Below, one piece after another: positions 1 to 52,589 of a stretch of 52,589 nt of DNA (positions are counted from its first letter, which is position 1; every line of letters starts with the position of its first letter). The position numbers were made by a program, and so were the translations under genes. Source of the DNA: a virus; the IMG/VR virus record IMGVR_UViG_3300005617_000012, positions 1 to 52,589 of that record, one strand, 5' to 3'. The notes beneath the pieces are model-generated. The model did no database searches. It was not told the DNA's origin and saw only the letters and a program-made list of their open reading frames with translations.

Positions 1-366
1 GGGGAAGCAGTCATGTCGTGGCGCGGGGAAGCAGTCATGTCGAGGCGCGGGAAAGCAGTCATGTCGAGGCGCGGGAAAGCAGTCATGTCGAGGCGTGGGG
101 AAGCAGTCATGTCGTGGCGTGGGAAAGCAGTCATGTCGTGGCGCGGGGAAGCAGTCATGTCGTGGCGCGGGGAAGCAGTCATGTCGAGGCGCGGGAAAGC
201 AGTCATGTCGAGGCGTGGGAAAGCAGTCATGTCGAGGCGTGGGGAAGCAGTCATGTCGTGGCGCGGGAAAGCAGTCATGTCGAGGCGTGGGAAAGCAGTC
301 ATGTCGAGGCGTGGGAAAGCAGTCATGTCGAGGCGTGGGGAAGCAGTCATGTCGTGGCGTGGGGAT
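1..366. repeat. 24-bp tandem repeat array, left contig end
   Basis: Fifteen copies of a 24-bp unit (ggggaagcagtcatgtcgtg plus gcgc) run head to tail from base 1; the core gtcatgtcg recurs every 24 bases from position 10 to 346. Copies differ only at three positions (A/T, C/T and G/A). The unit length is a multiple of three and the array is coding: in the frame of the downstream gene it reads SSHV(V/E)A(R/W)(G/E). The same array occurs at the right contig end, so the contig was broken inside it. True copy number is unknown because short-read assembly collapses such arrays. Confidence 0.97.
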
Positions 367-875
367 CGGTAACTGTTGCCGTCCAATCCGATTATTCAAT
401 CATAACTCTTTTCGCATTCGCTATTGCCATTGCTTCCTTCGTTAAGAACATCACCAAAAAAAGCAAAACCTGCTCTGTTGTAAAAATCCCGCCCGCCGAA
501 TGGACGGTTAAAGGGTGGCTCGAAAGACAAGGGATCGAAGCGAAGAATAAACTCGTCACTATCTTCAAGCGCGTTTCAATCGATTTCAAGACGCAAGAAG
601 GAACTCCCAATGAAACTTTATGGTCAGTTGGGCTGATTGTCGAGCACAAGGATTGGAATCCCACAAATCAAGAATGCGGCCCTGGCAAGTTCCACGCATG
701 CGGACGGCCTTACTTCTGCGACGAGTTTCGCGATAAGAAAGGTGATCGCTACATTGCGATCCAAGTAGCGGTCAAAGACCTTCACGCTTGGGAGAATCCT
801 GGTTATCCCAATAAAATCGCATTCCGTTCCTGTAAAGTTCTTCACGAGTGCAACCGTTTCGGGGAGAAACTGTGA
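3..875 (+). CDS. Octapeptide-repeat protein, C-terminal part (gene split by contig ends)
   Basis: This reading frame is open from the left contig edge. It begins with about 15 copies of the octapeptide SSHV(V/E)A(R/W)(G/E), then a hydrophobic stretch (ITLFAFAIAIASFV) followed by a basic segment, then a roughly 140-residue C-terminal domain with the motif GKFHACGRPYFCDEF. That domain resembles the DUF7666 group of phage proteins; I am only moderately sure. No ATG, GTG or TTG lies between the repeats and the conserved domain, so the start must be in or before the repeats; the natural start is at 52302. Eight-residue repeats of this kind probably fold as a beta-solenoid (inference). The stop overlaps the GTG of the macro-domain gene by 4 nt. 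Joined across the ends with one missing base the protein would be about 387 residues, or longer if repeats were collapsed. Function unknown. Confidence 0.8.
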   Translation, partial: GSSHVVARGSSHVEARESSHVEARESSHVEAWGSSHVVAWESSHVVARGSSHVVARGSSHVEARESSHVEAWESSHVEAWGSSHVVARESSHVEAWESSHVEAWESSHVEAWGSSHVVAWGSVTVAVQSDYSIITLFAFAIAIASFVKNITKKSKTCSVVKIPPAEWTVKGWLERQGIEAKNKLVTIFKRVSIDFKTQEGTPNETLWSVGLIVEHKDWNPTNQECGPGKFHACGRPYFCDEFRDKKGDRYIAIQVAVKDLHAWENPGYPNKIAFRSCKVLHECNRFGEKL

Positions 876-1303
876 AAATCATCACCGGCAGCCTCCTAGA
901 TCAAAAAGGCATTCTTTGCCATCAGGTCAATCTCAGGGGCATAATGGGCGCGGGCCTCGCGTTGCAGATTCGTCAGAAGTGGCCATCGGCGCATGATGAC
1001 TATGTGCGGTATTGTCGCGAGGGCGCGAAGCTGGGCGACGTGCTATTTTCGATTGTGAATGATGACCAAATCGTTGCGCATTGCTTCGGACAATCGGAAA
1101 TATCGCGCGATCATTGTGTGACGGCATACGAATTCTATCCTGAGATTCTGAAAACGGTTGAGGACTATTCAGCCGGGAGCGACTCGCCGGTCTTCATTCC
1201 GCACGGGATCGGCTGCGGGATTGCGTCTGGAAATTGGGGAGTAATGCTTCCTTTGTTGGAAAAACACTGTGCCTCGGCTACTCTAGTAAACTATGAATAT
1301 TAA
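872..1303 (+). CDS. Macro-domain (ADP-ribose-binding) protein
   Basis: This 143-residue protein is a stand-alone macro domain, a fold that binds ADP-ribose and often hydrolyses ADP-ribose derivatives such as ADP-ribosyl esters or ADP-ribose 1''-phosphate. Visible motifs are ILCHQVN near residue 14, the ligand loop GIMGAGLA at about 23-30, and IPHGIGCGIASGNWG at about 109-123, the pattern of the TARG1/ALC1-like branch. The chosen start is GTG at 872: it overlaps the TGA of the repeat-protein gene in a GTGA junction and has a GGGGAG ribosome site 5 nt upstream. The end overlaps the next gene. In phages such enzymes could reverse defensive ADP-ribosylation or recycle NAD breakdown products; which applies here is inference. 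Confidence 0.88.
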   Translation: MKIITGSLLDQKGILCHQVNLRGIMGAGLALQIRQKWPSAHDDYVRYCREGAKLGDVLFSIVNDDQIVAHCFGQSEISRDHCVTAYEFYPEILKTVEDYSAGSDSPVFIPHGIGCGIASGNWGVMLPLLEKHCASATLVNYEY

Positions 1304-1802
1304 TCAATATGGGCGTGACCCCGTTACTCGTTTCTGGAACAAGGTGGACAAATCTGAAGCTAGTGGCTGCTGGCTTTGGAAAGGAGCCAAGAACTTAAAG
1401 GGGTATGGCCATCTCAGTGTTTCAAAAAAGAGATGGAAGGCTCACCGCTACTCTTGGGTGCTTTCCTTCGGAGATATTCCAGAGGGAAGCGGCCACCACG
1501 GCACTTGCGTCTGTCATCGTTGCGACAATCCTTCGTGCGTAAACCCCTCTCACCTTTTCCTTGGAACGGTAGAAGAGAACAACAAAGATATGGTCGAGAA
1601 AGGACGCAAGGCCATCCAATTTGGAGAAGAGGCTTCACGCGCAAAGTTAAATGTCCCCCAGATTAGACTAGCGATGAGGTGCCACAAGCTAGGAGTAAGA
1701 ACAGTTTTTCTAACAAAAGTTTGGAAAATGGATCGAGGTACTTTCTACAAAATAGCACAGGGCAAATCTTGGAAGTATGTTTCGCTTGAGGAATCCAAAT
1801 GA
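1293..1802 (+). CDS. HNH homing-type endonuclease
   Basis: The 169-residue protein has the layout of small phage HNH_3-type nucleases: an N-terminal FWNKVDK segment, CWLWKG, a histidine-rich middle, and the zinc-binding and catalytic core CHRCDNPSCVNPSHL near residues 75-90 followed by FLGT. The C-terminal 60 residues look like a helical DNA-binding module. Such enzymes nick or cut DNA and often spread as free-standing homing genes. The ATG overlaps the end of the macro gene by 11 nt and its TGA overlaps the next start in an ATGA junction, so it sits inside the rightward operon. Confidence 0.88.
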   Translation: MNINQYGRDPVTRFWNKVDKSEASGCWLWKGAKNLKGYGHLSVSKKRWKAHRYSWVLSFGDIPEGSGHHGTCVCHRCDNPSCVNPSHLFLGTVEENNKDMVEKGRKAIQFGEEASRAKLNVPQIRLAMRCHKLGVRTVFLTKVWKMDRGTFYKIAQGKSWKYVSLEESK

Positions 1803-12153: not shown

Positions 12154-12888
12154 ATGGGAACGCTCTTGCTCTCTGCGTTATATTGGGGTGGCGATCTCAT
12201 CGAAATGGAGCGTGCCGTAGACTTGGCATCCGATCTCTTGGATAAAAAAACCGACAAGGCTCATCTTCTATTTGTGGGACGCCATGACGCCGAGCCTCCT
12301 TCCATTGAGCTAATTGAGCATACCAAGGAAAAGTTCGCCAGTGTCGAGCATTGGCGTTGTACGCGCTCAGGCACGGGCTATCCTTCAGGATGCAACGATC
12401 TGGCCTATGGCCTGTTTCAGTACATTGGAGAGCAACGTCGATTCAATAATCGCTATCGTGATGTTGATGCCGTTCTCATTTACGAATCTGATTGCGTGAT
12501 TACCCGCAAGGGATGGATTGAAGAATTATTGAGTGAGTGGGAGCGGGAGAAGGCCAAAAAAAGAACCATTGTTGGCTCGATTCAACCTAAGGGACGCTGG
12601 GGCAAGGATGTCGATTACCACGTCAATGCCGTTGCCATGTATCACCCCGATATCCTGCATGTGCTTCCTGGGCTCGCGGGAGGCCCTCCCGATGTCGGAT
12701 GGGACTACCATCACCGCCATGCGATGCTTACTCAGGTTGGAGATACCAAACTGATTAAATTAGACTTCCAAAAAAAGCACATCACGCCCGAGGAACTTTT
12801 CGATCAAAACAAAGAGGTGCTTATCTACCACGGAGTCAAAGGAGATTCGGCTATTCGTGCTGTTAGGGAAAGGTATCAGCTCAAATGA
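12154..12888 (+). CDS. GT-A-like glycosyltransferase
   Basis: The 244-residue protein has features of a family-2-like GT-A fold: LLFVGRHDAEPP near residue 30, the DxD-like VLIYESDC near residue 110, WIEELLSEW, and a C-terminal IYHGVKGDSAIRAV. The N-terminal half of the 544-residue enzyme at 10058 shares these features, so the two are probably related. It would transfer a sugar from a nucleotide donor to a phage or host glycan. Its stop overlaps the next start by 4 nt. Confidence 0.7.
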   Translation: MGTLLLSALYWGGDLIEMERAVDLASDLLDKKTDKAHLLFVGRHDAEPPSIELIEHTKEKFASVEHWRCTRSGTGYPSGCNDLAYGLFQYIGEQRRFNNRYRDVDAVLIYESDCVITRKGWIEELLSEWEREKAKKRTIVGSIQPKGRWGKDVDYHVNAVAMYHPDILHVLPGLAGGPPDVGWDYHHRHAMLTQVGDTKLIKLDFQKKHITPEELFDQNKEVLIYHGVKGDSAIRAVRERYQLK

Positions 12889-13613
12889 ATGATCGCACCT
12901 TAGTGTCGGTTCACGGTTACGCCGGGGATAGGCATCAGGTCGAGATGCTGAATATCTGCTATCAGCATCATGGATGCCCCGTTGTTATCGTATCCCCTAC
13001 CGATTCCAAGATTGAAGGCATCCCCAATGCTTCATCTGTTTTTGCCGGTCTACGCGGTTATATCGGCCAAATCACGTGGGATCGTCAGGTAGAACAAATG
13101 GAGCGATTGCTTGAATTTGACGCGGACTGGTTTCTGATGAATGACGCGGACTCTTTCTGCTTTACCCCCGAGTTACCTAAGTACCTCTTTTCCGACGACA
13201 ACGTAATTTACAGCAATCAAGTTAATGACTTTCGTATTCCCGGAGGAACATGGACAGACAAAAATGGATCGATTACTTGGAGCAAAGATTACCATAAAGG
13301 ATTCCCCTTAATCGCAATGCAGCCTCCCTACTTCTGCCATCGCAACGCGCTCGCTAAAATGGTGACGGCGGGAAGGGGATTGATAGCCGATCCTGTGACT
13401 CCTTTTATTGACTGGGCGTTTGTGGAATATGCCGTGCGCGGCTGCGTAAAACATCTTCCTTTTCTCACTGGCGTCTCCTGCGAAACCGAAACCGAAATGG
13501 GATTGCGGCTTGTAGCTAGCAAGGTACGCGAAGGCGCAACCTTCATACATGCTGTTAAGAGACCGGAAGCATTCCGCGTCCTCTGCGAAGCTTATTGGAG
13601 CACGCTGAAATGA
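12885..13613 (+). CDS. Probable glycosyltransferase
   Basis: The 242-residue protein opens with a Rossmann-like strand and loop (TLVSVHGYAGDRHQV), has CPVVIVSPTDS, and the DxD-like motif FLMNDADSFC near residue 85, followed by PELPKYLF. This is consistent with a small GT-A glycosyltransferase. It is coupled by ATGA overlaps to the glycosyltransferase before and the fucose-synthase-like gene after it, so all three should act on one glycan. Confidence 0.65.
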   Translation: MNDRTLVSVHGYAGDRHQVEMLNICYQHHGCPVVIVSPTDSKIEGIPNASSVFAGLRGYIGQITWDRQVEQMERLLEFDADWFLMNDADSFCFTPELPKYLFSDDNVIYSNQVNDFRIPGGTWTDKNGSITWSKDYHKGFPLIAMQPPYFCHRNALAKMVTAGRGLIADPVTPFIDWAFVEYAVRGCVKHLPFLTGVSCETETEMGLRLVASKVREGATFIHAVKRPEAFRVLCEAYWSTLK

Positions 13614-14527
13614 AAAAGATTCTCATCACCGGTCATCGGGGCTTGCTTGGAAACGCGTGCGTTCGGCATTTCAAATCTAGGTATCAGGTGGTTACTTCCG
13701 AAAGAACCGACCTGACGCAAGCCTGCGCGGTCTACCGCATGATTAACGTCGCTCGCCCTGACATCATCATACATTGCGCGGCCAAGGTTGGTGGCGTGAA
13801 AGCCAATCGGGATTATCCGGTAGAGTTCATGCTGCAAAATTTGCGCATGCAAAGCAACGTCATGGAATCAGCTCATGATTGCGGCGTGCAGACTTTAGTT
13901 CACGTTGCTACCTCTTGCATGTTTCCTAAGGATGCAGCTATGCCAGTTGAGGAAACCAGCTTGTTTACCGGTAAATTCGAGGATTCAGTCGAGGCCTATG
14001 CGCTGGCCAAGATTTGCGGTTGGCGATTAGCCAAAGCTTTTTACGAGCAATACGGGCGACGTTACCTGACGGTTGCTCCTTCCAATATCTATGGGCCAGG
14101 AGATTCTTATTCCGACCAAGCCCATGTCATTCCCTCCCTAATTCGTCGCTTCAATCAAGCCTCGCATGATCGCAAACCCCTAGAGGTCTGGGGCGACGGA
14201 ACCGCTATCCGGGAATTCATTTATTCTGACGATGTTGCATCGGCTATTGAGGCTGTCATTGAAAAATGGGATTCTCCGGAAGTGATCAATATCGGCACAG
14301 GAAAAGGAACCTCCATCGCCGAGCTTGTCTCGCTTATCTCGCTGACCTCTCCCTATCGAGATTATCCGGAAATCATTTGGAATACGGATCAACCGACAGG
14401 CATCCCCCGCAAGACTTTCTCCATACGTAAGATTACCTCTCTCGGCTGGAACCCTTCTACGGATTTGGAACAGGGGCTACGCGCCACATGGAAAGACTTT
14501 TTGACCAATAAACCACGAGGACTTTAA
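13610..14527 (+). CDS. fcl: GDP-L-fucose synthase-like epimerase/reductase
   Basis: The 305-residue protein is an extended short-chain dehydrogenase. It has the NADP-binding motif GHRGLLG at residues 8-14, the family signature AAKVGGVKANRDYP at 57-70, a Ser/Cys near residues 102-103 and the catalytic Y130-A-L-A-K134. This pattern is that of GDP-L-fucose synthase (GMER), which converts GDP-4-keto-6-deoxymannose to GDP-L-fucose by epimerisation and NADPH reduction. The length fits the family. The start at 13610 makes an ATGA overlap; the frame also extends five codons upstream. The partner dehydratase (gmd) is absent, so the substrate must come from the host. A related 4-reductase activity cannot be excluded. 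Confidence 0.85.
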   Translation: MKKILITGHRGLLGNACVRHFKSRYQVVTSERTDLTQACAVYRMINVARPDIIIHCAAKVGGVKANRDYPVEFMLQNLRMQSNVMESAHDCGVQTLVHVATSCMFPKDAAMPVEETSLFTGKFEDSVEAYALAKICGWRLAKAFYEQYGRRYLTVAPSNIYGPGDSYSDQAHVIPSLIRRFNQASHDRKPLEVWGDGTAIREFIYSDDVASAIEAVIEKWDSPEVINIGTGKGTSIAELVSLISLTSPYRDYPEIIWNTDQPTGIPRKTFSIRKITSLGWNPSTDLEQGLRATWKDFLTNKPRGL

Positions 14528-37536: not shown

Positions 37537-38291
37537 GGGAAAATCTCGTGTAGAGGGGCTACAGCTACGGGTTTTGGAGCGTCGGGGATTTTGGGCGTTG
37601 AGGGCTTGGGGGAGAGCCAGCTTCTAGCTCTGTCGAGGTCGGTAGTCCAATTGTTGAGCAGGGTAACAAGAGCAGTTCTGCGCCATGAAAGCTGCCCCTC
37701 AGTTGCGGTAGGGAGTCGATAGTAGGTTTCAATCAAGTCCAGTTCCTCAGCTAAGTCTGGACGCTTGAGGGATTTTAGGGCCTTTAGCTCTTTGTCGTTC
37801 CATGGCGTCGATTCCCGCCGATTGAACAACTTTTCGAGGCGCAATTGAAAATCAGTTTTCGTTTCAGAGACTTTAGCTTTACCCGTATCTGTTTCCTTAT
37901 CCTTATCCTTATCCTGTGGGCCATTACATGCCCCTTCTACAAGGGGCTTTGAAGGAGCTTTAAAGGGGCTTATGCCATTAGCTTCTAGAGATTTCATAAC
38001 TCCCTTATGGCAGGGATTTTGTGGATTTAATTCTCCGTATTGGTACGGAATAAATTTTGTAATGTGCCACCGCCCGTTTTCCAGTACAATTATCCGGCCT
38101 TTGAAGATTTCTTCGATTTCTTCCCATAAAATGGGCTCTCCTATCTGAAAACTGGCAAGTTCTAGATCGGCGTTCCATACCCCCGCGAGATCACAATTAT
38201 CCAAAAGATAAACCCAAAAAGCCTTGAATTTACATGGCAGCTTTCGGAACCATGAATCGCCCCATTTCGTTGTCTCGGTGAAGCGTTTCAT
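37518..38291 (-). CDS. Replication initiation / helicase-loader-like protein
   Basis: The 257-residue protein has an N-terminal region typical of phage replication organisers: WGDSWFRKLPCKFKAFWVYL then a winged-helix-like stretch with ENGRWHITKFIPYQYGEL. A charged linker (DKDKDKETDTGKAK) joins a helical C-terminal domain with SLKRPDLAEELDLIETYYRL. Its position just upstream of DnaB supports helicase loading, but no ATPase motif is present, so an origin-binding or primosomal role is more likely than a DnaC-type loader. Confidence 0.65.
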   Translation of the reverse strand: MKRFTETTKWGDSWFRKLPCKFKAFWVYLLDNCDLAGVWNADLELASFQIGEPILWEEIEEIFKGRIIVLENGRWHITKFIPYQYGELNPQNPCHKGVMKSLEANGISPFKAPSKPLVEGACNGPQDKDKDKETDTGKAKVSETKTDFQLRLEKLFNRRESTPWNDKELKALKSLKRPDLAEELDLIETYYRLPTATEGQLSWRRTALVTLLNNWTTDLDRARSWLSPKPSTPKIPDAPKPVAVAPLHEIFPCPTKP

Positions 38292-38902
38292 TGTTGATTC
38301 TGTGCCTTTACATTTCGTCGAATACCGTAAATGTATTTTATTATTTTAGTGTCTGAACCGGAATAGGTTCGAGTAGTGGCAATTTCTATCCATTCAAGTA
38401 TTGTGTCCAAGCCGTGTTCGTCGGCTAAGTTAACCAAGGTCGATAGAATCACCTTATTCATGGAATCGCGATTAACGCATTCGCAAAAATAGTTGCAGAC
38501 CATTTGTCTACGCTCTTTTCTGATATTCGCCAATTCAATGGCGTTTTCTGCGGCAATTTGTTGCTCTCTAAGTTCTTGCGCGATTCTAAGTCTATCTGAA
38601 TCGCTTGGAGCAAAACTGCTAATAATCTTGTCGCTTTTACCTTGGTTGCATTCCTCGCATGAACAACCCAAGTTAGCATCATCATTCGTGCCCCCGGCGG
38701 CAACAGGAATAATATGGTCTACCACGAGCTTTACTTGATCGCTTTGTCTTCCGCAATACCTGCAAGTAAAAGCATCTCTGGCAAATATACGAAATCGTGT
38801 TCCTTTGCTTATGCCTTCACGACGAGGTTTCGATTCGTTTAAAATCGGATTTTGTTGAGCAAATTGACTAATGGAGCCCAAGGATTTTTTCTTTCTACTC
38901 AT
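38288..38902 (-). CDS. HNH endonuclease
   Basis: The 204-residue protein has a canonical HNH core: CRYCGRQ, VVDHIIPVAAGGTND, then CSCEECNQGKSD (residues about 45-90), with the metal-binding His and the Asn/His pair in place. The C-terminal 90 residues are helical and end with IKYIYGIRRNVKAQ. It is tightly coupled to the replication gene after it and the 39-residue peptide before it, so it looks like a resident operon member rather than a recent insertion. Confidence 0.88.
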   Translation of the reverse strand: MSRKKKSLGSISQFAQQNPILNESKPRREGISKGTRFRIFARDAFTCRYCGRQSDQVKLVVDHIIPVAAGGTNDDANLGCSCEECNQGKSDKIISSFAPSDSDRLRIAQELREQQIAAENAIELANIRKERRQMVCNYFCECVNRDSMNKVILSTLVNLADEHGLDTILEWIEIATTRTYSGSDTKIIKYIYGIRRNVKAQNQQ

Positions 38903-41212: not shown

Positions 41213-41877
41213 CCCTTCTCTCCCGTAGAATCGTTGTGGGAGGCGAGGGCTTCTTCTGCGGCTTTCCTGCCTTCATAGCCTTCTAAATCGTCTGATTTAT
41301 GAGAAGGAATACCAATTTCGTTTAGCGTCCATTCGAGGGCTTTAGCCAACCTCTTCGCATCCTTCTCCGCTTTTATGGCGCGTTTTTCAGCAAGTCCAGA
41401 TTCTCCCTGCAACTTGGCGATCTCGTCTTCGCGATCCTGAATAACAACGCGATTGGCAACAATGATCGCCTCGGCCTTCTCCGCCCGCTCGTTTGCTTGG
41501 GCGAGTTGCTTGCGAAGGTCAAGTATTTGGCGAGCTTGTTTTAAGACAATCATCTCGTTTAACTCAGCCAATTTTTTCTCCCTCTCCACGGCGGCTGAGA
41601 TTACGGCTTGGGAGGCGTGCTCTGCGATATCTTTCTCGTAAGGACTTAATTTCTCCCAAGAATTGTAAGGCACATGGGGAAGCAACTCCTTAGCCTTCTC
41701 AAAAGCGGAATCACACCAAAGTTGCCCCAAACTCTTCTCCCCTTCTGATGGTGGGGGAGTCTTGATGCCAAATGAACTCCCGACACCGAAGATGTCCGCA
41801 TGGCAATTCGGACATTGAATCTTGACGCTAGGCGCGGGGGTGGCGTTATTTTCTTCTGGAATTTGATCACTGTTCAT
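41209..41877 (-). CDS. Coiled-coil protein with zinc-motif start
   Basis: The 222-residue protein has an early CPNCHADIFG that could pair two cysteines, then a helical domain and a long coiled coil (residues about 95-180, KKLAELNEMIVLKQARQ and later AEKRAIKAEKDAKRL). It ends with a helical acidic tail. Such Ea8.5/EaA-like accessory proteins occur in phage early regions, but no family is certain. Start MNSDQ at 41877 overlaps the HNH stop (ATGA). Confidence 0.6.
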   Translation of the reverse strand: MNSDQIPEENNATPAPSVKIQCPNCHADIFGVGSSFGIKTPPPSEGEKSLGQLWCDSAFEKAKELLPHVPYNSWEKLSPYEKDIAEHASQAVISAAVEREKKLAELNEMIVLKQARQILDLRKQLAQANERAEKAEAIIVANRVVIQDREDEIAKLQGESGLAEKRAIKAEKDAKRLAKALEWTLNEIGIPSHKSDDLEGYEGRKAAEEALASHNDSTGEKG

Positions 41878-42365
41878 ATGTGAGTCCATGTTTCTTCGCG
41901 TATAATCTGACTGATATTAGACCGACAAGATTTGTAAATTTTGCTAATCTTAGTGTGCGTAAACCCGGTCTTTGCAAGATTTCTGATTTCGATTACTGAC
42001 TGCTTTGTAAGTTTAGTGGGAAATCTCCCCTTTTTGGCGCAGTCCATGCGATTATCCAAATCTGTACCCAAAGACAAATGAGCGGGGTTACAGCAAGGAG
42101 GATTATCGCACGAATGCATGACCTTTTTGTCTCCGGGATCAGCATCTCCATTCGCGAATTGCCATGCCAATCGAGAGCAAATAAGTCCCTTACCCTTATA
42201 TTTAATCTGGCCGTATCCACCATCTTGACAATAATCCAGCCAAGGCCAGCACTCGTTGGCGTCTCCCTTCTGAACGCGAGAATGAAACGCAATTTTGAAT
42301 TGCTCCCAAGTTTCACGCTTGGTTCCTCCGCGAGAGCGAACTACGAAATTCGTACACTTACTCAT
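41874..42365 (-). CDS. HNH homing-type endonuclease
   Basis: The 163-residue protein has CWPWLDYC, then GQIKYKGKG and the core MHSCDNPPCCNPAHLSLGT (residues about 83-101), the HNH_3 pattern. The C-terminal part has a helix-turn-helix-like FTHTKISKIYKSCRSNISQI. It resembles the enzyme at 1293 in layout but not closely in sequence, so the two were probably acquired separately. Confidence 0.88.
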   Translation of the reverse strand: MSKCTNFVVRSRGGTKRETWEQFKIAFHSRVQKGDANECWPWLDYCQDGGYGQIKYKGKGLICSRLAWQFANGDADPGDKKVMHSCDNPPCCNPAHLSLGTDLDNRMDCAKKGRFPTKLTKQSVIEIRNLAKTGFTHTKISKIYKSCRSNISQIIREETWTHI

Positions 42366-51828: not shown

Positions 51829-52224
51829 ATGAATCCAATCGCTGAAAAAAACAGATACCTCAAGCAAGAAAATAAGAAATACGAATCCGGCATTTTTGTT
51901 TCGATCCACTCTTCAAAATGGCCCGAAAATAAAACACCTCGACCAATCCTTGCCGTTTATCGTTCCAGAGATTTTCTAGTGACCGTTTACGGCGGGGAAA
52001 CAATAAGACTTTCAATCTGCCGCACTTGGTTGGATCAAAGCGGGCGGTGGCAAGACGGAATATCCTGGGACGAAATTCAGGAAATTAAAAACAAGTGCGG
52101 ATTCCATGACAAAGACGCCGTTGAGATTTATCCAAAAGAAGAGGATGTCGTTAATGTGGCCAATATGCGTCACCTCTGGATATTGGAAGAAAACTCGCTT
52201 CCCTTTATTTGGAGGAAACATTAA
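51829..52224 (+). CDS. DUF7694-like protein, start of rightward early operon
   Basis: The 131-residue protein has a basic N-terminus, a beta-rich middle (GIFVSIHSSKW; FLVTVYGGETIRLSICRTW) and ISWDEIQEIKNKCGFHDKDA followed by MRHLWILEE. The order of a short strand segment, the WDEIQ helix and the final HLW pattern resembles the DUF7694 phage family. It is the first gene in the rightward set that crosses the contig junction. No ribosome site is visible. Confidence 0.65.
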   Translation: MNPIAEKNRYLKQENKKYESGIFVSIHSSKWPENKTPRPILAVYRSRDFLVTVYGGETIRLSICRTWLDQSGRWQDGISWDEIQEIKNKCGFHDKDAVEIYPKEEDVVNVANMRHLWILEENSLPFIWRKH

Positions 52225-52301: not shown

Positions 52302-52589
52302 ATGAAATCAATTACTGTTCGCAATCAGAAAGAGTGGAACGCACTACCTAAAGCATTTTCCGAAATAACGATTATTCGGATTGAGTCCGATGCCAATGTT
52401 TGGCTTTCGATTTCGGGTAAACCGGAATCGTCTTGCGTCGTGGCGCGGGGAAGCAGTCATGTCGTGGCGCGGGGAAGCAGTCATGTCGAGGCGTGGGGAA
52501 GCAGTCATGTCGTGGCGCGGGGAAGCAGTCATGTCGTGGCGCGGGGAAGCAGTCATGTCGTGGCGCGGGGAAGCAGTCATGTCGAGGCG
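52302..52589 (+). CDS. Octapeptide-repeat protein, N-terminal part (open at contig end)
   Basis: ATG 52302 opens a frame that has no stop before the contig end. It encodes a 45-residue cap domain (VRNQKEWNALPKAFSEITII; SDANVWLSISGKPESS) and then six octapeptides of the form SSHV(V/E)A(R/W)G. The frame matches exactly the frame that continues at base 3 into the C-terminal part ending at 875; one base is missing at the junction. It is therefore the first part of the same gene. No other protein would be encoded on this strand here. The cap and repeat arrangement is typical of beta-solenoid proteins that begin with a folded cap (inference). Confidence 0.85.
   Translation, partial: MKSITVRNQKEWNALPKAFSEITIIRIESDANVWLSISGKPESSCVVARGSSHVVARGSSHVEAWGSSHVVARGSSHVVARGSSHVVARGSSHVEA
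52437..52589. repeat. 24-bp tandem repeat array, right contig end
   Basis: Six copies of the same 24-bp unit as at the left end; gtcatgtcg occurs every 24 bases from 52456 to 52576. The contig stops after gaggcg. Joining this end to base 1 leaves the repeat one base short (a C or T), consistent with an assembly cut rather than a natural end. Confidence 0.97.

What the first reader, a model, noticed from the sequence alone, without database searches (positions are those of the whole stretch)
1..366. Octapeptide array varies only at three amino-acid-changing bases
Across 21 visible units every difference falls on three binary sites, GTG/GAG (V/E), CGG/TGG (R/W) and GGA/GAA (G/E). There is no synonymous change. 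Seven of the eight possible combinations occur (VRG, ERE, EWG, VWE, EWE, VRE, VWG; no ERG), in a mosaic order. This is more like selected or shuffled variation on a rigid solenoid than random drift, and it could change the surface of a binding protein.
Basis: partly seen in the sequence, partly recalled or inferred. Interest (0 to 1): 0.8.

Follow-up and report, generated by a model that had tools for sequence, protein, structure and literature searches.

The report
Diversified octapeptide array on RIIB-like protein
A phage gene carries a run of near-identical eight-residue repeats that differ only at three amino-acid positions, and dozens of unrelated phages keep the same three positions variable while everything else in the repeat is homogenised; this suggests a tunable recognition surface fused to a relative of the classic T4 anti-exclusion protein RIIB.

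Summary
The window is a complete 52,589-bp IMG/VR record, and both contig ends lie inside one array gene: 15 units at 1-365 and 5 full plus 1 partial unit at 52452-52589. All differences fall on GTG/GAG, CGG/TGG and GGA/GAA.

In this array alone, three nonsynonymous sites out of three prove little (P about 0.39). Comparison settles it. In 41 homologous arrays (422 units) I counted 171 nonsynonymous against 17 synonymous variants, and 155 of the 171 sit at the same three codons (5, 7, 8). Unit backbones are homogenised within arrays (codon difference 0.00-0.03) but differ between phages (0.60-0.88). Two pairs of phages with near-identical flanks differ in array order, and all 16 of their mismatches in the aligned arrays lie at those codons.

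The repeat is predicted to form a beta-solenoid. The C-terminal domain belongs with DUF7666 and the C-terminal domain of phage RIIB (profile E 2e-8). A macro-like gene overlaps it by 4 bp.

Best reading: an intracellular counter-defence or host-interaction protein whose recognition surface is diversified by unit shuffling plus selection. Selection is well supported; the counter-defence role is inferred. Tweety gp54 and BPP-1 bbp36 VR2 are published precedents.

The parts
52302..52427 (+). N-terminal cap of the array protein (MKSITVRNQKEWNALPKAFSEITIIRIESDANVWLSISGKPE)
   Evidence: the same cap in L026, L014, Che8 gp59 and ThetaBob gp59; PHROG_15773 E 9e-20
52428..52451 (+). degenerate first unit SSCVVARG
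52452..52589 (+). tail part of the octapeptide array: 5 full units and 18 bases of a sixth; the contig stops just before the C/T (R/W) site
1..365 (+). head part of the array: end of one unit (1-5) and 15 full units (6-365), consensus AGC AGT CAT GTC G[T/A]G GCG [C/T]GG G[G/A]A
366..515 (+). C-terminal cap of the solenoid (short regular strands) leading into the globular domain; boundary approximate
   Evidence: AlphaFold2 model of window 375-872, pLDDT 95
516..872 (+). C-terminal globular domain of the DUF7666/RIIB type; boundary approximate
   Evidence: Pfam DUF7666 E 6.8e-5, below cutoff; hhalign to DUF7666 members E 3e-11 and to RIIB E 2e-8; BFVD fold matches to RIIB
872..1303 (+). probable macro-domain gene overlapping the array gene by 4 bp (GTGA); longest ORF starts at 848
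   Evidence: DarG macro model E 3.1e-9, partial and far below cutoff; PHROG_335 E 1e-19; Pfam Macro E 0.027, below cutoff
1293..1802 (+). HNH endonuclease gene next in the cluster
   Evidence: Pfam HNH_3 E 4e-9
51829..52224 (+). small upstream gene on the same strand, DUF7694
   Evidence: Pfam E 5e-19

Best explanation
The array is a beta-solenoid of octapeptides linking a conserved N-cap to a C-terminal DUF7666/RIIB-type domain. Shown by sequence comparison: units are homogenised within each phage by duplication and recombination (concerted evolution), yet three codons (p5 V/E, p7 R/W, p8 G/acid) stay dimorphic in nearly every array and are reshuffled between close relatives. This means strong selection for amino-acid diversity at just these positions. 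Inferred: the protein acts inside the host during infection as a counter-defence or host-interaction factor of the RIIB kind. The solenoid is its recognition or length-tuning surface, and unit gain, loss and exchange retune it against changing host or prophage defence proteins. The coupled macro-type gene suggests an ADP-ribose-related step in some phages.
For: Variant spectrum: 171 N vs 17 S against 26% expected synonymous, p about 1e-8; 155 of 171 N at codons 5, 7, 8. In 33 of 42 arrays all three sites are dimorphic. Within-array codon difference 0.00-0.03 at codons 1, 2, 4, 6 against 0.60-0.88 between arrays, but 0.48-0.51 within arrays at codons 5, 7, 8. Val at p5 uses GTR in 40 of 41 arrays (a GTR Val mutates directly to Glu) while the invariant Val at p4 uses it in 10 of 45, p 7e-14. 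R/W is reached from CGG or AGG, and G/acid as GGA/GAA, GGG/GAG, GGC/GAC or GGT/GAT, so the pattern is not one mutational hotspot. L019/L022: 8 mismatches in about 200 bp of array, all at these codons, 2 in about 3500 bp of flank; L038/L047: 8 in the array, 0 in about 3500 bp. Solenoid model. RIIB: hhalign prob 95, E 2e-8; BFVD RIIB hits E about 1e-6 to 3e-7, TM 0.55-0.59. Diverse RII proteins suppress RexAB (PMC11879866). Tweety gp54 repeat number tunes counter-defence (PMC9262239). Macro-like genes with a 4-bp overlap in the window, L018, L030, L036 and BPP-1 bbp36/37.
Against: No function has been tested for any member. The window lacks a detectable rIIA, and the RIIB relationship covers only the C-terminal domain. 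Tweety gp54 is not homologous by sequence. Arrays share ancestry, so variant counts are not fully independent. Most loci are short-read assemblies, where unit order may be scrambled. L004 alone carries 7 of the 17 synonymous variants. Macro-like genes are found at only a minority of loci.
Confidence: 0.5

Rival explanations
1. Neutral coding minisatellite: replication slippage and unequal crossing-over spread a few chance variants, with no selection on the amino acids.
For: 24-bp in-register array with mosaic order, as in any minisatellite. In the window alone only three sites vary and P(0 synonymous of 3) is about 0.39.
Against: The same three codons vary in about 40 arrays with different backbone codons, and synonymous variants are three-fold depleted.
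Confidence: 0.07
2. Virion surface or receptor-binding protein diversified for host range.
For: Beta-solenoids are common in tail spikes; charged/aromatic switches would change a surface.
Against: The gene sits among small non-structural genes, far from the TerL-like gene and the large minus-strand genes. It carries a DUF7666/RIIB-type domain. [quoted passage not shown]
Confidence: 0.1
3. ADP-ribosyltransferase-like effector: the C-terminal domain is an active ART, the solenoid picks the target, and the overlapping macro gene reverses or limits the modification (DarTG-like logic).
For: Foldseek PDB neighbours are mostly ART folds (CNFy D4 region, Arr, Tpt1/KptA) at prob up to 0.84, TM about 0.35. 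Macro-like genes directly downstream at several loci.
Against: All PDB matches have E > 0.03. No ART catalytic triad was identified. Most loci lack a macro-like neighbour. RIIB is not known as an ART.
Confidence: 0.15
4. Length spacer: only the number of units matters (distance between the two end domains), and the substitutions merely keep the solenoid soluble.
For: Tweety escape mutants change repeat number (PMC9262239). Unit number varies between close relatives (8 vs at least 20 in L019/L022).
Against: Does not explain why V/E, R/W and G/acid stay dimorphic at three fixed codons or why R is held in W-adjacent codons.
Confidence: 0.15
5. Assembly artefact: a short-read assembler mixed units of different molecules.
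For: The contig ends in the array; 26 of 49 related viral contigs also break in this gene.
Against: The same pattern occurs in isolated phages (Che8, ThetaBob, Squirty, Frankie) and in Bordetella phage isolates. Unit order in the window may still be wrong.
Confidence: 0.03

Closest known systems
Bordetella phage BPP-1/BIP-1/BMP-1 bbp36 with VR2
   Same: DUF7666 domain (E 1.7e-10) plus a 24-bp/octapeptide array that differs in number and order among near-identical isolates; followed by a 4-bp-overlapping small gene (bbp37, A1S_2505) whose relative follows the array gene in L018
   Different: Domain order is reversed (DUF7666 first), the units are GTATAG+YR/ES/NY, and the array sequences are not alignable as homologues
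Mycobacteriophage Che8 gp59 / ThetaBob gp59 / Squirty gp51 / Frankie gp59 (PHROG_15773)
   Same: Same architecture: N-cap, octapeptide array, DUF7666; direct homologues
   Different: p3 also varies (H/R) and p7 has more residues; unannotated function
Mycobacteriophage Tweety gp54
   Same: Unique ends around a tetra/octapeptide array with invariant third codon positions and amino-acid-changing variation; array length tunes counter-defence (PMC2884959, PMC9262239)
   Different: No detectable homology of the C-terminal domain; AAxx units. In Che8 its homologue (gene 57) lies two genes upstream of gp59
T4 RIIB and other phage RIIB proteins
   Same: C-terminal domain: hhalign prob 95, E 2e-8, and BFVD fold matches
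   Different: RIIB has an N-terminal HTH and pairs with RIIA; no array
Fungal NLR WD40 repeats with high internal conservation (het-d/het-e)
   Same: Concerted evolution with a few codons per repeat under diversifying selection on an interaction surface; not recoverable from Illumina assemblies (PMC12222747)
   Different: Unrelated proteins and fold; an analogy for how it works only

Membership tests
PHROG_15773 / mycobacteriophage Che8 gp59-type array proteins | Profile match covering cap, array and C-terminal domain | tested here: met
   E 7.4e-50 (head) and 9e-20 (tail); tblastn to Che8, ThetaBob, Squirty
DUF7666 (PF24703) | Score above the curated Pfam cut-off | tested here: inconclusive
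   23.7 bits vs cut-off 27 for the window, while homologues Che8 gp59 and ThetaBob gp59 score 46.8 and 46.7; profile comparison E 3e-11
Phage RIIB | Conserved C-terminal domain | tested here: met
   hhalign prob 95.3, E 2e-8; BFVD RIIB hits
Phage RIIB | N-terminal helix-turn-helix region | tested here: not met
   The array protein has an N-cap and octapeptides instead; weak HTH matches are found in T4 RIIB
Phage RIIB | Adjacent rIIA partner gene | tested here: inconclusive
   No match to T4 RIIA in the window, but no positive control and distant RIIA could be missed
Tweety gp54 | Sequence homology outside the repeats | tested here: not met
   hhalign prob 0.1
Diversity-generating retroelement target | Reverse transcriptase in the genome | tested here: not met
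   No RVT_1 match in the record (control genomes rang)
Diversity-generating retroelement target | Adenine-directed substitutions | tested here: not met
   Window sites are T/A, C/T, G/A; in relatives also A/T (AGG/TGG)
T4 gp5-type triple-stranded beta-helix (octapeptide) | Pfam Gp5_trimer_C above cut-off | tested here: not met
   12 bits vs cut-off 30.9; oligomeric state not testable here

The most novel reading that the evidence does not exclude
A widespread phage counter-defence family in which an RIIB-type domain is aimed by a combinatorial solenoid. Each octapeptide carries three two-state positions, and unit shuffling produces a repertoire of recognition surfaces that tracks diversifying host or prophage immune proteins, a viral counterpart of fungal NLR repeats.
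Probability: 0.33. Interest if true: 0.86.

Novelty: new variant of a known kind. Interest (0 to 1): 0.66.

Why it matters
RIIB has been studied for some seven decades, yet the specificity of its interaction with RexAB is described as unclear (PMC11879866). Tweety gp54 and BPP-1 VR2 have been separate curiosities. This family links a RIIB-type domain to a repeat array in which homogenisation has erased everything except three selected codons per unit, and it supplies about 40 natural arrays, isolated M. smegmatis phages and near-identical natural pairs in which the tuning idea can be tested directly. It also shows that short-read viral contigs often break in this gene, so its diversity is under-recorded.

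Tried and rejected
(1) The window array alone as proof of selection: rejected, P about 0.39. (2) Unit order in the window as non-random: adjacent-identity test p 0.21. (3) Lag correlations of the three sites over pooled arrays: a weak V-R / E-W association within units (z 3.1) and scattered lag effects, not interpretable because block duplications create them. (4) Homology with Tweety gp54: none. (5) Diversity-generating retroelement: no reverse transcriptase, wrong substitutions. (6) Solved structures: no sequence relative of the C-terminal domain; matches of the array to beta-lactamase inhibitory protein II have no significant single stretch in the two alignments printed and were taken as compositional. 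Pfam prion-octapeptide and Gp5_trimer_C hits are below cut-off. (7) PDB fold search of the whole protein: nothing with E < 0.1. (8) NCBIfam: no family for the array protein. (9) Literature search for DUF7666: no paper. (10) PMC9503650 on viral NAD/ADP-ribose systems does not mention RIIB.

Full report
WHAT IS THERE. The window is a whole IMG/VR record of 52,589 bp, classed linear. Both ends lie in the same gene. The head holds 15 complete 24-bp units (6-365) after 5 bases of another. The tail holds a degenerate unit (52428-52451), five complete units (52452-52571) and 18 bases of a sixth. The frame that is open from ATG 52302 through the array to the stop at 873-875 reads SSHV[V/E]A[R/W][G/E]. 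The tail stops just before the C/T site and the head starts just after it, so the contig most likely ends at a fork in the assembly graph; a circular or permuted genome would lack one base plus a multiple of 24. The real array may be longer than 21 units and its order may be imperfect. In 26 of 49 related viral contigs the contig edge also falls in this gene.

CHANCE. In the window alone, finding no silent change among three sites has P about 0.39, and the order does not differ from shuffled order. The claim of selection therefore cannot rest on this array.

RELATIVES. Searches with the C-terminal part gave 49 viral loci (L003-L007, L013-L056) and six genomic ones (L057-L062). Cultured phages Che8 (gp59), ThetaBob (gp59), Squirty (gp51) and Frankie (gp59) were found by tblastn and read. 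Where the gene is complete, members share an N-cap of the type M..I.V.TQ.E.D, an array and the C-terminal domain; PHROG_15773 (unknown function) matches at E 7e-50. The octapeptide is [NS][SA]xV[V/E]A[R/W][G/E/D] in most arrays, with some loci carrying other unit types.

SELECTION. In 41 arrays with at least five usable units (422 units) I counted each within-array single-base variant once: 171 nonsynonymous, 17 synonymous (7 from L004 alone), where 26% synonymous is expected from the codons (binomial p about 1e-8, approximate because arrays share ancestry). Of the nonsynonymous variants 46, 59 and 50 are at codons 5, 7 and 8, and 16 elsewhere. All three sites are dimorphic in 33 of 42 arrays. 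Two random units of the same array differ at codons 1, 2, 4 and 6 with probability 0.00-0.03, units of different arrays with probability 0.60-0.88. At codons 5, 7 and 8 the within-array value is 0.48-0.51. Homogenisation is thus almost complete except at three codons. Codon choice agrees: Val at p5 is GTG or GTA in 40 of 41 arrays, while the invariant Val at p4 ends in a purine in only 10 of 45 (p 7e-14). Arg at p7 is CGG or AGG, both one step from Trp. The p8 pair is GGA/GAA, GGG/GAG, GGC/GAC or GGT/GAT in most arrays. The same amino-acid switches are reached through different bases, which excludes a single mutational hotspot. This generalises what Pham et al. noted for the repeats of Tweety gp54 (PMC2884959).

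TURNOVER. L019 and L022 come from different samples. Over the 3704 aligned bases they differ at 10: eight in about 200 bp of array, all V/E, R/W or G/D, and two in the flank. L019 has 8 units, L022 at least 20. L038 and L047 come from the same sample identifier: eight mismatches, all at the three codons, and none in about 3.5 kb of flank. In L038/L047 the Asp/Gly switch is GAT/GGC, two bases at once, which points to exchange of whole units rather than fresh mutation. BPP-1, BIP-1, BMP-1 and vB_BbrP_003 likewise have closely similar flanks and differ in VR2.

STRUCTURE. AlphaFold2 on full-length L014 with 20 relatives: mean pLDDT 88, pTM 0.66. Each octapeptide forms one four-residue strand (p3-p6) and one four-residue turn (p7, p8, p1, p2). 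Since p4 (V) and p6 (A) are conserved, they should face the core; p5 then faces out and p7 and p8 lie at the corner. The window's own C-terminal part (375-872) with 47 relatives: pLDDT 95.

THE C-TERMINAL DOMAIN. Pfam DUF7666 hits the window below cut-off (23.7 vs 27 bits) but Che8 gp59, ThetaBob gp59 and bbp36 above it. Profile comparison with those members gives E 3e-11. Foldseek against viral models returns RIIB proteins of many phages with probability 1.0, the best named ones at E 3e-7 to 1e-6 and TM 0.56-0.59. An alignment of 12 RIIB proteins (T4, Aeromonas, Vibrio, Erwinia, Streptomyces phages and others) matches the window family at hhalign prob 95.3, E 2e-8. Against solved structures the best matches are weak and mostly of the ADP-ribosyltransferase fold (CNFy, Arr, KptA/Tpt1; E above 0.03, TM about 0.35), so an ART-like fold is only a lead. 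Placing the CNFy region among ART folds rests on my own knowledge.

NEIGHBOURS. The next gene in the window (GTG at 872, overlapping the stop by 4 bp) is probably a macro-domain protein: partial match to the DarG model E 3e-9, far below its cut-off; PHROG_335 E 1e-19; Pfam Macro only 0.027. L030 (PHROG_335 E 2e-10, over its first third) and L036 (no family match; macro-like by my reading of the sequence only) have such a gene with the same 4-bp overlap. In L018 the overlapping gene is of the A1S_2505 family (E 1.5e-36), 40% identical to bbp37, which follows bbp36 in BPP-1 with the same overlap. Calling A1S_2505 macro-like is my reading. L019/L022 have a macro gene 322 bp downstream. Most loci have none. 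Upstream is DUF7694, downstream HNH. The surrounding plus-strand genes are small; a TerL-like gene, a DnaB helicase and a Sak4-like annealing protein lie on the other strand.

HOW IT MOST LIKELY WORKS. Shown: solenoid-type repeat (predicted), homogenised units, three codons kept variable, rapid reshuffling, RIIB-type domain. Known from papers: diverse RII systems suppress RexAB (PMC11879866; also PMC8594841); Tweety gp54 escape mutants change repeat number and thereby tune counter-defence against Phrann and MichelleMyBell prophage systems (PMC9262239, PMC8549241); VR2 variation in bbp36 does not appear to follow host tropism and bbp36 is not essential (PMC2884959). Inferred: the array protein is a counter-defence or host-interaction protein whose solenoid recognises, or spaces domains against, variable host proteins. 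Recombination between units, possibly helped by a Sak4-like annealing protein, supplies variants, and selection removes arrays that are uniform at p5, p7 and p8. Concerted evolution with a few selected codons per repeat is the logic of fungal het-d/het-e WD40 repeats (PMC12222747).

LIMITS. I know of no experiment on this family. Array counts share ancestry. Most loci are metagenome assemblies, probably from short reads. RIIB membership fails on the N-terminal HTH, no RIIA partner was seen, and Tweety gp54 is an analogue, not a detectable homologue.

Noticed in passing
L032:333-866 and 870-1676: Two adjacent array genes: an SATVRASG-type array with the window-type C-terminal domain, followed by a DUF7666 + TGGYSATM array gene homologous to Bordetella phage bbp36. 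This links the two architectures in one locus.
   Followed up: partly
L009 (Che8) genes 57-59: The Che8 homologue of the tunable counter-defence gene Tweety 54 lies two genes upstream of the octapeptide/DUF7666 gene 59, so two unrelated repeat proteins share a locus.
   Followed up: partly
L035, L046, L059, L060, L051, L053, L030: The same C-terminal domain is attached to other repeat types (units such as SSSPRIEAWE, NSSPSIVSWG, SATINSVYD, a longer unit of about 21 residues, alternating AELRE/SVLWG): the domain swaps solenoids.
   Followed up: no
L063 (BPP-1) 13703-14134; L018 954-1379: bbp37 and the gene after the L018 array are A1S_2505-family proteins that look macro-like, overlapping the array gene by 4 bp in both.
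   Followed up: partly
window 12154-14527: A plus-strand gene group beside the TerL-like gene that includes an NAD-dependent epimerase (13595-14527); possible surface-glycan or DNA modification cargo.
   Followed up: no
window 1293-1802, 38288-38902, 41874-42365: Three HNH endonuclease genes (two HNH_3, one HNH_5/HNH), probably homing or small mobile genes.
   Followed up: no
BFVD matches: The RIIB/DUF7666 fold also appears in giant-virus 'ankyrin repeat' proteins, suggesting a broader class of this domain joined to repeat solenoids.
   Followed up: no
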